Source of the DNA: Liolophura sinensis | Taxonomy: Eukaryota > Mollusca > Polyplacophora > Chitonida > Chitonidae | Direction: 5' to 3' | Assembly (NCBI RefSeq): GCF_032854445.1 | Contig: NC_088295.1 | Location: forward strand, 21,873,385 to 21,937,384 | DNA length: 64,000 bases | Shown here: positions 1-47,648 of the stretch, in pieces | Layout of the letters: each line of letters opens with the position of its first letter | Position numbering within the stretch: position 1 is the first letter of the stretch | Position numbers and translations under genes: made by a program | The notes under the pieces: generated by a model | The model's database searches: none | What the model saw: only the letters and a program-made list of their open reading frames with translations | Told to the model about the DNA's origin: nothing

Positions 1-111
1 AAACTGTTGAGCACGTTATGAAAGTTTCTTACTTGATGCAAAATTATTAAAAGCTATTATATTTGTTATTATTGTTGTTGTTGTTTTTTTTTGTTTTTTT
101 TTGTCATGCAG

Positions 112-8491
<8,380 letters not shown>

Positions 8492-9930: not shown

Positions 9931-10486
9931 GACATACACGTAGCAGGAACAGTCTACCTTCTCTGCCATACATGTAGTGGGAACAGTCTATATCACTTTC
10001 TACCTTCTCTGCCATACAGGTAGCAGGAACAGTCTATATCAAGTTCAGCCTTCTCTGCAATACACATAGCAGGAACAGTCTATATCACTTTCTACCTTCT
10101 CTGCAATACACATAGCAGGAACAGTCGATATCACATTCTACCTTATCTGTCATACACATAGCAGGAACAGTCGATATCACATTCTACCTTATCTGTCATA
10201 CACGTAGCGGGAACAGTCTATATCACTTTCTACATTCTCTGTCATACACGTAGCAGGAACAGTCTATATCCCTTTCTACATTCTCTGCCATACACATAGC
10301 AGGAACAGTCTTATATCACTTTCTACATTCTCTGTAATACACGTAGCAGTAACAGTCTATATCCCTTTCTACATTCTCTGCCATACACGTAGCAGGAACA
10401 GGCTGTATCACTTCCTGCATTCTCTGCCATACACATAGCAGGAACGGTCTATATCACTTTCTGCCTTCTCTGCCATACATATTTAA
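9931..10486. repeat. 46-bp minisatellite, about 12 copies
   Basis: The anchor 'tagcaggaacagtc' and variants recurs at 9941, 9975, 10021, 10067, 10113, 10159, 10205, 10251, 10297, 10344, 10390 and 10436. The spacing is 46 bp throughout, apart from a shortened first unit (34 bp) and one of 47 bp. Each unit continues with 'tatatcactttctaccttctctgccatacac' variants. Divergence between copies is low to moderate. It lies between the 3' ends of Piwi and C2orf68. Confidence 0.95.
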
Positions 10487-21200: not shown

Positions 21201-24200
21201 TCTGGTCATTTATGGGATGGTCTGTCAGCAACCTGCAAATGGTTATGGATAGTGCTGGGGCTCTGCCCAGTTTCCTCCCACCATATTGCTGGCTGCCATC
21301 ATATGAGTGAAATATTCTTGAGTACGGTGTAACACCAATCAAAAAATTAAATAAATACAATGTAATTAAAAAATTCTTAATCCTGAAATTATAAACTAAG
21401 CTAACCTAAAGAAATGTTGTCACCATTTAAAAGGTAAAAGAATTTCACTGTGGTGAAAGACACAGGTTGCTCATAGTAATTGTGTGATGTTATAATAATG
21501 CAGAAAATCGTACAACTAGTTATATAAGCTATCAGATTGACCTATACAGGTTGCTATTCTCTCACAGCTTTTTCCTCGTGAAATTTTTTGTGTTACTGTG
21601 TATGTGATTTATTTATTTATTTGATTGGTGTTTTACGCTGTACTCAAGAATATTTCACTTATACGACGGCGGCCACCATTATGGTGGGATGAAACCAGGC
21701 AGAGCCCGGGGGAAACCCATGACCATTCACAGGTTGCTGACAGACCTTCTCACTTATGGCCGGAGAGGAAGCCAGCATGGACTTGAACTCACACTGTGTA
21801 TGTGGTGAGGTCATTTACTGTGGCAGTCAGTTAAGTCACCCATTACAATCTGCATGCACAACCTTTTCTCGTTTCAGGGGATGCTATAGATTTCCTGTCA
21901 TGGTTTCTGAATGCTCTTCACACTGCTTTAGGGGGAAATAAGAAGTTGTCCAGCAGCGTTGTAAACAAGACGTTTCGAGGGAAAATGAAAGTCTATTCAA
22001 GAAAGATGCCTCCAGTTGATATGGTACAAAAGAATAACACTAAATAATTGCTGATGTGAGATATGGAAAGTCATTCAATAAATTATTTGTGTTATTTCTT
22101 CTGATAATCATGTAGTTTGTCAGAAGATATTCTAATCTTCATGGAAAGAGCTTAAGGTGTAGCGCTAATACTTCCTCTGGTCATTAATTCAGAGAGTGTG
22201 TAATTTTTTGCTTCAGAAAGAAGAGGAGAAAGAGACATTACTTCTTATGGAAGATTACAAAGGTACTTATTTTTCGATGGGACTTCATATGTCATAAACA
22301 TCAGATGCTGTATAGTTGTCAGTATTAAAATGAAATCTTGATCTTTGTGGGAATTACTGGTTCTTGGAAGATACCTTTACCTCAGGTTTGTTACATGTAT
22401 TCTTCATGATGCTTTGATGTTAGACCGTTCAGTCAGTAAAGTTTTGTATCCAATATCTGAGTGGACTTAAGTTCCTCACTTACAAAATTGTTGAAGATAG
22501 AGGCTGACACCTGTGTGATAAATCTTTCAGAGACGATGGATGACATTCCGTGGTTGTTCCTCACCTGTGACCTGCCACCTCCACCGCTTTATCCAGATGG
22601 ACTGAGAGAAAACATCATCCCACAGGTTCCCCTGGCCACCATCTTGTCTAAATTTAATGGTGTATCAGAGAAGGAATACAAAACCTACAAGGATTCTACC
22701 ATGAAAAGATTTGAAATCACCCACCTTCCCCCATACATCATACTCTATGTCAAAGTAAGTTTCTAGGTTTAAATGTTAATGAAATTTAAGCTAATAGTAA
22801 TATGAAAGTGTTTGTACCTTTTGTGTGTTCATTTAATGATCAAAAGTGTAATACACTCATCAGGATTTTATACCTGTCTTTTCTGTTGTGATTTACATGT
22901 TTTACCATTCATGAATGCATATATAGTCATTTTCAGCTTGATAATGTATGTAAAATTTTTCATTTTAGAGGTTCAACAAAAACTACTTTGTATTGGAGAA
23001 GAATCGAACAATTGTTAATTTCCCTGTTAAGTAAGTATAAACCTAAGTAATATGGTACTTTATCACCTTGAAAATGACAACTGCAACATTACAAAAACAT
23101 GTTGTTTGTGAAGTATATTTTTATATTTGTGGCTGGTGTTGCTATTTTATGCCAAAAAGGGGTTATAAAGAATAAATTAATTTAAGCGCTGTTGTATTTT
23201 TTTTAATTTTTTTTTTTTATATTTTTTCTGGTAGGAATGTAGATTTTGGTGACCTGCTGTCTCCAGAAATCAGAGCCAAGCACAGGTTCACCACTTACGA
23301 TTTGATCAGTAACATTGTACACGAAGGAGAACCAGGCGCTGGACAGGGCTCCTATAAGGTTCACATCCTACATAAGGTGAGTACAGGTGCCTGACCTAGT
23401 CAGTAACATTGTACATGAAGACAAGCCAGGTGCTGGACAGGGCTCCTTTGAGGTTCACATCCTACATAGAGTGAGTACATGTGTCTGACCTAGTCTTTAA
23501 CATTGTACATGAAGGCGAGCCTCCTATAAGGTTCACATCCTACATAAGGTGAGCACAGGTGTCTGACCTAGTCAGTAATATTGTACATGGATGAGAAACA
23601 GGTGTTGGACATAGCACAGTTCACATTTGTGTTAATCAAAAGAATTTGTATTTGTATGCAAAGCTCCTGTCCTAATCCATGTAAAATCTATCATGTTTCA
23701 GGGAACTCAAAAGTGGTATGAGATGCAGGACCTTCATGTGATTGACATCCTTCCTCAAATGATCACTTTATCAGAGAGTTACATCCAGGTGAGATTGCTT
23801 TGTACTTCTGGATAGCTCTGTTGGGCTGATTTGGTTTGTCAGAGAGTTACATCCAGGTGAGATTGCTGTGTACTTCTGAATAACTTTGTCGGGGTGATTT
23901 GTCAGAGAGTTACATCCAGGTGAGATTGCTGTGTAACTGTAATTCGGGGAAGCTCTGTTGGGCTGATTTGTCAGAGAGTTACATCGATGTGAGATTGCTG
24001 TGTACTTCTGGATAACTCTGTCGAGGTGGTTTTGTCGAAGAGTTACATCTAGGTGAGATTGGTGTGTACTTCTGGATAACTCTGTCGGGGTGGTTTGTCG
24101 GAGAGTTACATCCAGGTGAGATTGCTGTGTAACTATATTTCTTGGTAGCTCTGTTGAGCTGGTTTGTCAGAGTTACATTCAGGTGAGATTGTTGTGTAAC

Positions 24201-24533
24201 TAGTGTTTAGGAAGTACTAATGATGCATTCCACTTAAGTATTTGATTGGTTGTTGGGCTCAGCCTTGTAAATAGTGGAAAGATATGAGACAGTTTTCTTA
24301 TAATGAAGCATGTTACAGAAAAATACAGTCACTGACTGATTGGTTTGCCTGATGGTGCTAAACAATTTACTGCTATGTTTTCTTCACAGATCTATGAGTT
24401 AAGGAGGGACATCCCCAATCCAAATTTTGGTGTGGTGCCAGAGAAGACTGGGGAAGACATGGAAGGAGTTGCAGTTACAAAAGAGAGTGGCACAAAAGGG
24501 GAGACAACTTCACAATCTGCCAAAGAAAGCTGA
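15237..24533 (+). CDS. USP39: USP39 (Sad1p/Snu66-complex U4/U6.U5 snRNP protein), inactive ubiquitin protease family
   Basis: USP39 is a spliceosomal tri-snRNP factor. Exons: 15237-15330, 17816-17879, 18196-18290, 18697-18833, 20109-20205, 20471-20526, 20807-21032, 21878-22023, 22217-22262, 22531-22754, 22969-23030, 23235-23376, 23702-23788, 24390-24533. All phases agree and the product is 539 residues (human about 565). A ZnF-UBP domain spans roughly residues 43-130, with C45, C64, C76, C79, H91 and H95 as likely zinc ligands. The USP fold follows. Its Cys box reads GLNNIKANDYCNVVLQ, with D174 where active enzymes have Cys, and the His box reads GSY instead of GHY. It therefore lacks protease residues, as in the human protein. 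The N-terminal RS-rich extension of vertebrates is shortened to a basic segment (SILKRK). The identification rests on near-continuous similarity. Confidence 0.97.
15475..16213. mobile_element. Foldback MITE with about 240-bp inverted repeats in USP39 intron 1
   Basis: The left arm (about 15475-15717) and right arm (about 15974-16213) are imperfect inverted repeats. The inner 55-60 bases around 'atccatccatatttaagtac' and 'gaaatggccgccat' are almost identical, while the outer ends match 'agacgctagcgtagtcat' against a complement in the right arm. The roughly 250-bp centre has no transposase. The inner arm ends carry facing GCCGCCATTT motifs (YY1-like). I could not fix a target duplication. It is probably a non-autonomous DNA transposon. 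Confidence 0.85.
16214..17815 (+). other. Rest of USP39 intron 1
   Basis: Non-coding. It holds a short TA microsatellite at about 17763-17782 directly upstream of the exon 2 acceptor tract. I recognise no other element. Confidence 0.6.
18834..20108 (+). other. USP39 intron 4, 1.27 kb
   Basis: Overlapping ORFs of about 100 codons at 19349-19703 have no recognisable motif and sit between an in-phase exon pair, so I read this as intron. No clear repeat family is visible. Confidence 0.6.
21100..21358 (+). repeat. SINE copy A (plus)
   Basis: Near full-length tRNA-derived SINE in USP39 intron 7. It has a tRNA-like head 'ccttggctggt..gcatgctag', the central 'ctctgcccagtttcctcccacca' domain, and the 3' end 'gaaatattcttgagtacggtg..accaatcaa' followed by an A-rich tail. 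Confidence 0.85.
21607..21842 (-). repeat. SINE copy B (minus)
   Basis: Reverse-oriented copy in the same intron as copy A, starting with 'atttatttatttgattggtg' and including the 'gtgggatgaaaccaggcagagccc' central domain. With copy A it forms an inverted pair about 250 bp apart that ends about 35 bp before USP39 exon 8. Confidence 0.85.
23308..23610 (+). repeat. Tandem copies of the USP39 exon 12/intron junction
   Basis: The last about 70 bases of exon 12, its GTGAGT donor and the first intron bases recur downstream: units begin at about 23308, 23402, 23495 and 23572 (last one partial). Extra donor-like sites sit at 23471 (GTGAGT) and 23549 (GTGAGC). Read-through from the true donor at 23377 meets TGA within six codons, so the copies cannot extend the protein in frame. 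Confidence 0.85.
23771..24210 (+). repeat. Seven-copy tandem array of the USP39 exon 13 end plus splice donor
   Basis: The unit, about 60-68 bp, starts 'tcagagagttacatccag|gtgagattgctgtg' and runs to 'ctctgt(t/c)gggctgatttg'. The first copy holds the true end of exon 13 (donor at 23789); six more follow in the intron. Nearly every copy keeps a GTGAGA donor after a CAG-like exon end. Confidence 0.9.
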
Positions 24534-25335
24534 TACAGACTTTTTTGTCATAAACTTTTTGCTGTAAAAGTCGGGAATTCCTGTAATTTGTGTATTTAGC
24601 AGGGAGGTTTGAAACAGTCACGTAGAAACTTGAAACCTAGCGATTTGGCAGAAAAGTTTTCTTCAAAACTGGTGAAACAAGAAATTTATTGATTTTTTTG
24701 CTATATAAAGTAATTGGTGCATCTTGTTTCTTTACAATTTATTTTTGTTGTATTTCACTAATAATGTCACTTGAACTGTTAAATATCAATCAGTGGACCA
24801 AATACATGTACATGAATGAAATGCTGAGTTTATCTGAACTTCATTTAGTCCTTGGCCTTGCATTTTTAGCTCGCCTGTACAAAGTACAAGAGTAACTTAT
24901 GTCATAACCTAAGCATTCGCGTTTGCTTCCAATACCAGCTAAATGATCTTAAGGTGAATGATATAGGTCATATCTTAAGAAGGTCTGCATGTATTGGGTT
25001 CTGGTTTGGCATACATGTACAGCACAATAATTCTTGGGGGATGTTCCATCAATGATGCTCTCTGTGCATATTAATTACAGTAAACTACAAAATTCAGAAC
25101 ATAGCTTTGTATGCTCTGGAATCAATTTCAAGGTAAGTGTTAGGGATGGTTGATTGAGCTCAGGGTTTGTATACATTCAAATCACAGTAACCTAAGACGG
25201 ATATTCCATCATTTATGCCTAGCATGTGTATGTGTGGATTACTGTAAGTTAAACAGCTGAATTCTTGACTTCTTGTCTCTTTTTCTGTCTTAGCATCCAT
25301 GTTAAAGTAAATGAATAAATTATAAGTTTTGTCAC
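24534..25335 (+). other. USP39 3' UTR with poly(A) signal
   Basis: AT-rich sequence after the stop codon. AATAAA at 25314-25319 is the first good polyadenylation signal downstream. The UTR end is inferred. Confidence 0.6.
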
Positions 25336-45328: not shown

Positions 45329-47648
45329 ATGGATATAAAGGAGAGAATAATTTTGGAAGTTGAAAAGAATCCGGTATTATTTGATAAGTCGAATCCGAAT
45401 TACAAAAGAGTGGACTTTAACGAAGACATCTGGTCAAGTATTGGGGAAAAGCTGGGAATTTCAGGTGAGTAAAGTCTGTGGAAATCACTTCATCGTTTTA
45501 TAGACAATCCTCGGGGCAAGAAATTAACATATGCCCCCTAGACCCTGTCTAGTAAAATTTGCTGTTGGGCTAGTACATTTTATGGAACACTAGCCCTTCT
45601 GGCTATAGCCATTTTGAATACATAAAATCACTAGTCAGGGTAAAGAATGGACAGTAAACTATCAGAATACTTTCAATATTCTTTATGATCGGCTTTTAAT
45701 CTGTTGGCTATGATCTCCATGATACATCAGAAAAATAAAGACTTGTCACCTGTAATATTGTTCATAAATACCAGTTTGTAAGTTAACATGCATGTACATG
45801 TGTCAGTGATTTCCAACTCCTCAAAGATGTGGGCTAGCTACATGCTCAGTGGGCTAGTTAATTTCTTGTCGCACTAGCCATGCAGTCTAACAATTAAATT
45901 CAAGTCCTGATCCTATAGTGAGAATTTAATTAGCACGACCGAAACCGTATTCTCGCTGCCAAGCGACGGCGCCAGCTGCAGACGAAAAGTACGTTTTGTA
46001 CTTGTTTCTAACTAGTGCGTCGTTAGTTGCATGACATCCACGGTGACTCAAATTCCTCAAAATACTGTTTGGTGTGGGTTCATTTTCATTAACTGCTTGG
46101 GAGTAGCTTTGCTGGTTTTGACTCTGCAACATGTTATGAAGCACACATGTCGCTCGCACAACGGAATCCAAGTTTTCTGGGCTCAATGGTATTTTCCAGT
46201 GGTACATTCGCCATCGACTTGCTAAAATACCGAATGCGTTCTCGGAAATTCGTCGAGCGTACAAAAGGCGATAATTGTAAATCCTGTCTTCATCATTCAG
46301 TCCACGGACGGGTACTGGGCGCATTGTGTGGGTCGTGAGTGGGAAAGCTTCATCGGCAACCAGTGCATAAAGCATTGACCCTAGTTCTGGGGCGTCCGGC
46401 AACGGTTTGTCATTGGGAAGGCCGAGTGTGTCATTTTGAAGCTTTTTACCTAAAGCACTGCTCTTGAACAACCCGCCATCACTGTTCGAACCATACCCAC
46501 CAGCGTCTATTACGCTGAAGCAGTACTTGTCATCCACCAAGGCGAGAAGCACGATTGAAAATGTACCCTTGTAGTTATAATACGTGGATCCTGAAGCTGG
46601 GGGAGCAGTGATTACAACATGCTTCCCATCTAGTGCCCCAAAACAGTTGGGAAAATTCCAACGCTCAGAAAATCCTTTTTCTATATTTTCCCAGTCATCT
46701 GTAGTCGGTTCGCTCATGTAGATGGGTTGCAGCCTACGCCAGATAGCATCACACGTCTCCTTGACAATCTTGCTAACCGTAGATTTCCCAACACGGTAGC
46801 TGAAAGATATTGTTGAATATGAATCTCCAGTCGCCAGGAACCTGAAAAAATATTAAACAAAACTGTATATTTTCATTTCAGGTTCTGATGTTCAAACGAA
46901 ATGGCGAAACATTCGTGACTGCATGGCGATACATGTGAAGAAGAACAAGACCAAGAGTGGCCAGGCAGCTACCGCTAAAAAAACCATACAAGTATGAGCA
47001 TATCCTCGGGTTTCTCATTCCAACTCTGGATGAAAGGGCAACTAGCAGTAACTTAAACGATGACATTGGACCAGAGGACGAGGACGATGGATTTACGCTG
47101 GGCGATACACAAAATACACAGCTTGCCATCGATGAGGAGGTGGAACCGGAAAACGCAGCACAAAGTCCGGCAACAGTGCCTAAACCGAGCACCATTACAC
47201 CCCGACCCCCGCCAAAGAAAAGGCGAAATTCTCTCCCCGTCGAAAGTGTGGATACGGCCATAGTAGATTACATCATGAAAAAACCGATGAGGGCCCAAAA
47301 CGCGCCCCCCAAGTCGACGATGACGATATGATGATGTTTTTGAAGTCTCTGGCGCCTACCATCCGAAAGTTACCACCCCGAGGTCAGGCGGAAGTCCGCT
47401 TTTCTATTTCAAAAATCATTCATGATGCCGAAGTGGAATACCTGTACCCAAAATAGTCGTTCTCTCTAACCCCTATTCAAGTGGCGAACCCTAACCGATC
47501 GCAGAGTGTCAGTTGTCAAATGTACGATTCTCCATATCAGCGCAGTGACACTCCGTCTTCTCAGATCAGCAATCAGTCGTTTGGCAGCGATTCTGTGATG
47601 TTCAGCCCCGAGACGAATGCATACCCGATTAATATGTACAAGCACTAG
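45329..47648 (+). pseudogene. Harbinger ORF1: MADF (Myb/SANT-like) DNA-binding protein with BESS-like tail
   Basis: This accessory protein normally recruits the transposase to DNA. Exon 1 is 45329-45464 (start MDIKERIILEVEKNPVLFDK, a MADF domain) and exon 2 is 46882-47648, joined in phase (ISG|SDVQTKWRNIRDC). In exon 2 the frame shifts at the A7 run 46977-46983, where one A seems extra. It continues in another frame (PYKYEHILGFLIPTLDERA, then an acidic and PPPKKRR stretch). It shifts back at the C6 run 47305-47310, where one C seems missing, into a BESS-like DDMMMFLKSLAPTIRKLPPR. The in-frame TAG at 47454-47456 then precedes a plausible tail to 47648. With two frame changes and one stop it is most likely inactive. 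Its intron contains the antisense transposase exon. Confidence 0.8.

What the first reader, a model, noticed from the sequence alone, without database searches (positions are those of the whole stretch)
23771..24210. Seven-copy splice-donor minisatellite grown from the USP39 exon 13 end
The next intron shows the same phenomenon independently: a 60-68 bp unit with the exon end and GTGAGA donor is repeated seven times, most copies keeping donor consensus. Two adjacent introns of one splicing factor gene expanding from their 5' splice sites is unusual and may reflect a shared mechanism, or selection for donor arrays that modulate splicing.
Basis: partly seen in the sequence, partly recalled or inferred. 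Interest (0 to 1): 0.7.

Follow-up and report, generated by a model that had tools for sequence, protein, structure and literature searches.

The report
Splice-site minisatellite in chiton USP39
A short stretch spanning an exon end and its splice-donor signal is repeated seven times in an intron of the chiton USP39 gene; it is real, but many genes of this genome carry such arrays, and the same kind of array is known from amphioxus and from the human ABCA7 gene.

Summary
At 23767-24198 a 63-69 bp unit (18 bp of exon end plus 45-51 bp of intron) is repeated seven times. The first GT is the real donor of USP39's penultimate coding exon. All seven copies keep GTGAGA and five keep CAG|GTGAGA. The preceding intron has an independent array (23306-23589, 94 bp unit).

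The genome is the chiton Liolophura sinensis, and boundary-spanning minisatellites are common in it. Of 12 sampled donor-motif arrays whose starts could be read, 7 begin at an exon with a known homologue: ankyrin, antistasin, prominin, Mot1/BTAF1 twice, alpha-L-fucosidase and a CIAO3-like protein. Among 20 kinase exons not chosen for repeats, one has a donor array and one an acceptor array. USP39 is therefore not special. Donor motifs inside arrays are no better kept than other parts of the unit, and use of any downstream donor would add a stop after eight codons. The best reading is tolerated minisatellite growth across a splice boundary, of the amphioxus 'mirage' and human ABCA7 VNTR kind. 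No earlier mollusc report turned up. What may be new is the prevalence; a boundary-directed mutation process remains possible.

The parts
23767..24198 (+). Seven-copy donor-anchored minisatellite, 63-69 bp unit, occupying about two thirds of the last USP39 intron (23789-24389)
   Evidence: TRF; unit alignment and donor positions; no other copies in the genome
23702..23788 (+). Penultimate coding exon of USP39 (87 nt, GTQKWYEMQDLHVIDILPQMITLSESYIQ); its last 18 nt are the exonic part of the unit
23789..23794 (+). First donor GTGAGA, taken as the real 5' splice site (CAG|GTGAGA)
   Evidence: protein alignment to human USP39 across the junction; donor score 93.9
23857..24188 (+). Six downstream donor copies, GT at 23857, 23920, 23989, 24053, 24116 and 24183
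24390..24535 (+). Last coding exon of USP39 after the acceptor TTCACAG, ending at the stop of ...SQSAKES*
23306..23589 (+). Independent array in the preceding intron: unit 94 bp (71 nt exon end plus 23 nt intron), donors at 23377, 23471, 23549, decayed fourth copy
   Evidence: TRF

Best explanation
A mirage-type minisatellite. An ancestral tandem duplication took in the end of the exon, its donor and some 50 bp of intron, then grew by unequal exchange or slippage (a three-unit block copied once more, plus an outer decayed unit). The duplication is tolerated because the first donor keeps its place next to the exon and the extra copies lie inside the intron and are removed with it. The downstream copies are at most decoys: their use would append VRLLCTSG and a stop, and most such transcripts would be expected to go to nonsense-mediated decay. 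The genome is rich in minisatellites, so many introns show this. Shown: array structure, coding first donor, frame consequences, recurrence in other genes. Inferred: use of the first donor in RNA, neutrality, mutational route.
For: Array and unit structure with nested three-unit periodicity; unit unique to the locus, so not a dispersed repeat; conserved protein across both junctions; downstream donors lead to a stop 41 nt (donor 2) or 104-367 nt (donors 3-7) before the last junction, and likewise an early stop for the previous intron; outermost copy most diverged, 0.56-0.70 identity, the usual edge effect; seven further exon-anchored donor arrays plus a kinase donor array and a kinase acceptor array; donor motifs not better kept than the rest of the unit (percentiles 0.83 in USP39, 0.45 ankyrin, 0.23 antistasin, 0.29 A323); same phenomenon described in amphioxus genes, with normal splicing by RT-PCR (PMC3087553; PMC3902484), and in human ABCA7 (PMC5954066).
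Against: Donor-motif arrays are about twice as many as those of same-composition control motifs by hits (2582 against 1154-1601) and 18 against 3 and 6 by arrays in the first 5.47 Mb of C1, which simple indifference to position may not explain. GTGAGATTG is invariant in six of seven copies and GTGAGATTG/GAGTTACAT are the best-kept stretches. No RNA data were available.
Confidence: 0.75

Rival explanations
1. Exon boundaries (or donors in particular) are favoured starting points of tandem duplication in this genome, for example through transcription-linked breaks or R-loops, so the arrays reflect a directed mutation process rather than mere tolerance.
For: Triple-donor pattern 2582 hits against 1238, 1154 and 1601 for controls of the same composition; at spacing 18-48, 2027 against 1045; the single donor 8-mer is not commoner than the control in held sequence (13 against 19 in 208 kb); 7 of 12 readable arrays start at a homology-confirmed exon end.
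Against: Acceptor-motif arrays are enriched over their reversal to the same degree (1610 against 724), so nothing points to the donor as such; counts are hits, not independent arrays; the first 5.5 Mb of C1 is an array-rich scaffold end; 2 of 7 arrays at boundaries in the 20 kinase loci is compatible with random placement.
Confidence: 0.17
2. The array is selected: multiple donors tune USP39 splicing, for example as decoys or a switch giving decay-prone transcripts.
For: All seven copies keep GTGAGA, five a strong donor (score 93.9); all extensions give an early stop; human ABCA7 shows that VNTR length can alter splicing.
Against: Donor columns are not better conserved than exonic or other windows of the unit; the same kind of array sits in unrelated genes; array 1 has a weakened second donor (AGAGTGAGT, 77.4) and a lost fourth.
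Confidence: 0.06
3. The array is an assembly error or a piece of a dispersed repeat.
For: Tandem arrays are prone to misassembly (general knowledge).
Against: Copies differ from each other (0.56-0.92 identity); the assembly is from HiFi reads; the unit is unique in the genome.
Confidence: 0.01

Closest known systems
Amphioxus 'mirages' (Adh3, globins BflGb6 and BflGb9, PGBD5, troponin C; PMC3087553, PMC3902484)
   Same: Minisatellite-like tandem copies spanning an exon-intron boundary, donor or acceptor side, units of tens to about 160 bp, many but not all copies keeping splice signals, inner copies more alike than the edge copy
   Different: Here the host is a mollusc; instability and splicing were tested in amphioxus, not here
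Human ABCA7 intron 18 VNTR (PMC5954066)
   Same: The first GT of the tandem repeat is the real donor of the preceding exon; a downstream copy serves as a cryptic donor; retaining one unit gives a premature stop
   Different: 25 bp unit, about 24 copies in the reference; length variation and effects on splicing and disease measured there, unknown here
Intron gain by tandem genomic duplication (PMC4974935, seen as a search result only; model discussed in PMC3087553)
   Same: Tandem duplication carrying an AG|GT splice signal
   Different: Here an intron is lengthened; no sign that a new intron was made

Membership tests
Amphioxus-type mirage | Tandem repeat units span an exon-intron boundary | tested here: met
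   First unit covers the last 18 nt of the exon and the donor
Amphioxus-type mirage | Unit of about 10-160 bp with divergent copies, many but not all retaining splice signals | tested here: met
   63-69 bp; 5 of 7 with full CAG|GTGAGA, all with GT
Amphioxus-type mirage | Regular splicing undisturbed | not testable with these tools
   No RNA data; only the conserved reading frame through the first donor was shown
Amphioxus-type mirage | Length instability between alleles or cells | not testable with these tools
   One collapsed assembly only
ABCA7-type donor-anchored VNTR | First GT of the array is the canonical donor | tested here: met
ABCA7-type donor-anchored VNTR | Copy number varies between individuals and alters splicing | not testable with these tools
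   No population or RNA data
Intron gain by tandem genomic duplication | A new intron lies between duplicated AG|GT signals | not tested
   No related genome was available to show absence of the intron; the array lies within one intron

The most novel reading that the evidence does not exclude
Splice boundaries act as preferred seeds of minisatellites throughout this chiton genome, through a boundary- or transcription-linked duplication process, so that hundreds of introns grow from their ends and present arrays of decoy splice sites.
Probability: 0.2. Interest if true: 0.7.

Novelty: new member of a known kind. Interest (0 to 1): 0.4.

Why it matters
It extends boundary-spanning minisatellites, reported in the papers found here for amphioxus and one human gene, to a mollusc in which they appear to be common. 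A genome with many natural arrays of near-identical donors next to real exons is a ready test bed for how the spliceosome picks one of several equal 5' splice sites, and for whether introns lengthen or arise from such duplications.

Tried and rejected
Amphioxus as the host (suggested by the likeness to mirages): a GFP-family search found nothing but was uninformative; the mitochondrial gene order, recalled as the chiton/ancestral mollusc type, pointed to a mollusc, and assembly size, scaffold number and longest scaffold match the Liolophura assembly, since corrected to L. sinensis. A dispersed repeat was rejected. Selection for donors was looked for by column conservation and not found. The other tandem arrays of the window (9456, 9953, 14656, 29293, 41175) were inspected in six-frame translation and none was recognised as exon-anchored. 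Sampled arrays not found to be exon-anchored: A1936, A2084, L096, L101; starts not reached: A1413, L099; A323 (L050) starts at an open frame without a known homologue.

Full report
Observation. The sequence at 23767-24198 is a tandem array of seven units of 63-69 bp. Each unit starts with TCAGAGAGTTACATCCAG or a variant of it, the last 18 nt of a coding exon, followed by GTGAGATTG and 40-odd bp of intron. All seven copies keep GTGAGA; five keep CAG before it, copy 4 reads GAT and copy 5 TAG. The best periodicity is three units (196 bp), which says that a block of three was copied after the first duplications; the outermost unit is the most diverged (0.56-0.70 identity against 0.81-0.92 among the rest). 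A search of the whole genome with the unit returns only these seven copies, so it is not a dispersed element. The intron before it carries an unrelated array at 23306-23589 with a 94 bp unit (71 nt of exon, 23 nt of intron), donors AAGGTGAGT, AGAGTGAGT and AAGGTGAGC and a decayed fourth copy without a donor.

Gene. The exons encode USP39: E 1e-70 to human USP39/hSad1, and the alignment continues through HILHK|GTQ and YIQ|IYE, which makes the first GT of each array the coding donor. If a downstream donor were used, the last-intron array would add VRLLCTSG and a stop for every choice; the stop would lie 41 nt before the last junction for donor 2 and 104-367 nt for donors 3-7. In the preceding intron the extension is VSTGA and a stop. 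By the usual 50-55 nt rule (general knowledge) most such transcripts would be decay targets.

Host. The assembly has 609,464,459 bases in 632 contigs. Its mitochondrial contig has the gene order I recall for chitons and other conservative molluscs. Size, scaffold number and longest scaffold (96,433,062) match the published Liolophura japonica assembly (PMC11068029), which its authors have since renamed Liolophura sinensis (PMC12441733). The finding is therefore in a mollusc, not in amphioxus, where such arrays were named.

How common. A pattern of three AGGTRAGT 8-mers 53-83 bp apart gives 2582 hits, against 1238 for the reversed motif and 1154 and 1601 for two other motifs of the same composition. 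At shorter spacing the counts are 2027 and 1045. In the first 5.47 Mb of C1, merging hits within 2 kb by hand, I count 18 donor arrays against 3 and 6 control arrays. That region is richer in arrays than the genome average, so the genome-wide ratio is nearer two by hits. The donor 8-mer itself is not commoner than the control (13 against 19 in 208 kb). I read the sequence at the start of 14 of the 18 arrays. In two the start was not reached (A1413, L099). Of the other 12, seven begin at an exon with a known homologue: ankyrin (L051), antistasin (L056), prominin (L094), Mot1/BTAF1 (L095 with DUF3535, L098 matching Mot1-like helicase structures), alpha-L-fucosidase (L097) and a CIAO3-like iron-hydrogenase-family protein (L100); one begins at an open frame without a homologue (A323), four do not begin at an exon I could recognise. 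The names Mot1/BTAF1 and CIAO3 are my reading of the matches. The antistasin case is ambiguous, because its 81 bp unit keeps frame and could be coding. As a sample not chosen for repeats, 20 multi-exon kinase exons gave one donor array (L087, unit about 66 bp, exon end ...FGILLWETVTMG) and one acceptor array (L075, 80 bp x 7, CTGTTTCAG|ATAGTTTCTGC). Acceptor-motif arrays are also about twice their control (1610 against 724). Two adjacent arrays in one gene are thus not remarkable here; the Mot1 gene appears to have two as well.

Mechanism. The most economical account is tolerance: a tandem duplication across a donor leaves the first donor in place and puts the copies inside the intron, where they can grow as any minisatellite does. 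Selection for multiple donors predicts that donor columns are better kept than the rest of the unit. In the USP39 last-intron array they rank at the 0.83 percentile, in the ankyrin, antistasin and A323 arrays at 0.45, 0.23 and 0.29; in USP39 an exonic stretch is as invariant as the donor. There is thus no sign of selection, for or against, though with few arrays the test is weak. A boundary-directed duplication process is not excluded: the excess of splice-motif arrays over control motifs is not explained by tolerance alone, but hits are not independent, and regions were not matched genome-wide.

Known counterparts. Tandem duplications of exon-intron boundaries are described in amphioxus globin, Adh3, troponin C and PGBD5 genes as 'mirages', on both donor and acceptor sides, with normal splicing by RT-PCR and length instability (PMC3087553; PMC3902484). 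The human ABCA7 VNTR starts with the GT of exon 18's donor, shows retention of a single unit and its length goes with exon 19 skipping (PMC5954066). A search for minisatellite, mollusc, intron and splice donor together found no paper, which is weak evidence that a mollusc case has not been reported.

Verdict. Confirmed as a sequence feature; ordinary for this genome; a new member of a known kind. The wider point, that boundary-spanning minisatellites look common in a chiton, deserves an annotated genome-wide scan and RNA data.

Noticed in passing
window 37-7775 (+): Exons of a Piwi-family gene (PAZ at 37-354, Piwi domain at 7470-7775).
   Followed up: partly
window 45929-46852 (-): A 308-aa open frame with a DDE_Tnp_4 domain, i.e. 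a Harbinger-type transposase.
   Followed up: partly
window 9953-10479: A separate 46 bp x 11.4 minisatellite between genes or in an unrecognised intron.
   Followed up: partly
L056 (G000:C1:1310495-1310907 and flanks): An 81 bp (27 codon) unit repeated about 19 times from the end of an antistasin-domain exon stays in frame almost throughout; it could be a donor array or a coding repeat.
   Followed up: partly
L075 172-747: An acceptor-side array: seven 80 bp copies of TTTCAG|ATAGTTTCTGC... ending at the true start of a kinase exon.
   Followed up: partly
G000:C99 8348-102844: Seven COX1 matches about 15.5 kb apart: tandem copies of the mitochondrial genome in one contig, either an assembly concatemer or a nuclear insertion.
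   Followed up: no
G000:C1 4178252-4199451 (-): Three donor-motif arrays within 21 kb on the same strand, two of them at Mot1/BTAF1 exons; the third (4178252-4179798) may belong to the same gene.
   Followed up: no
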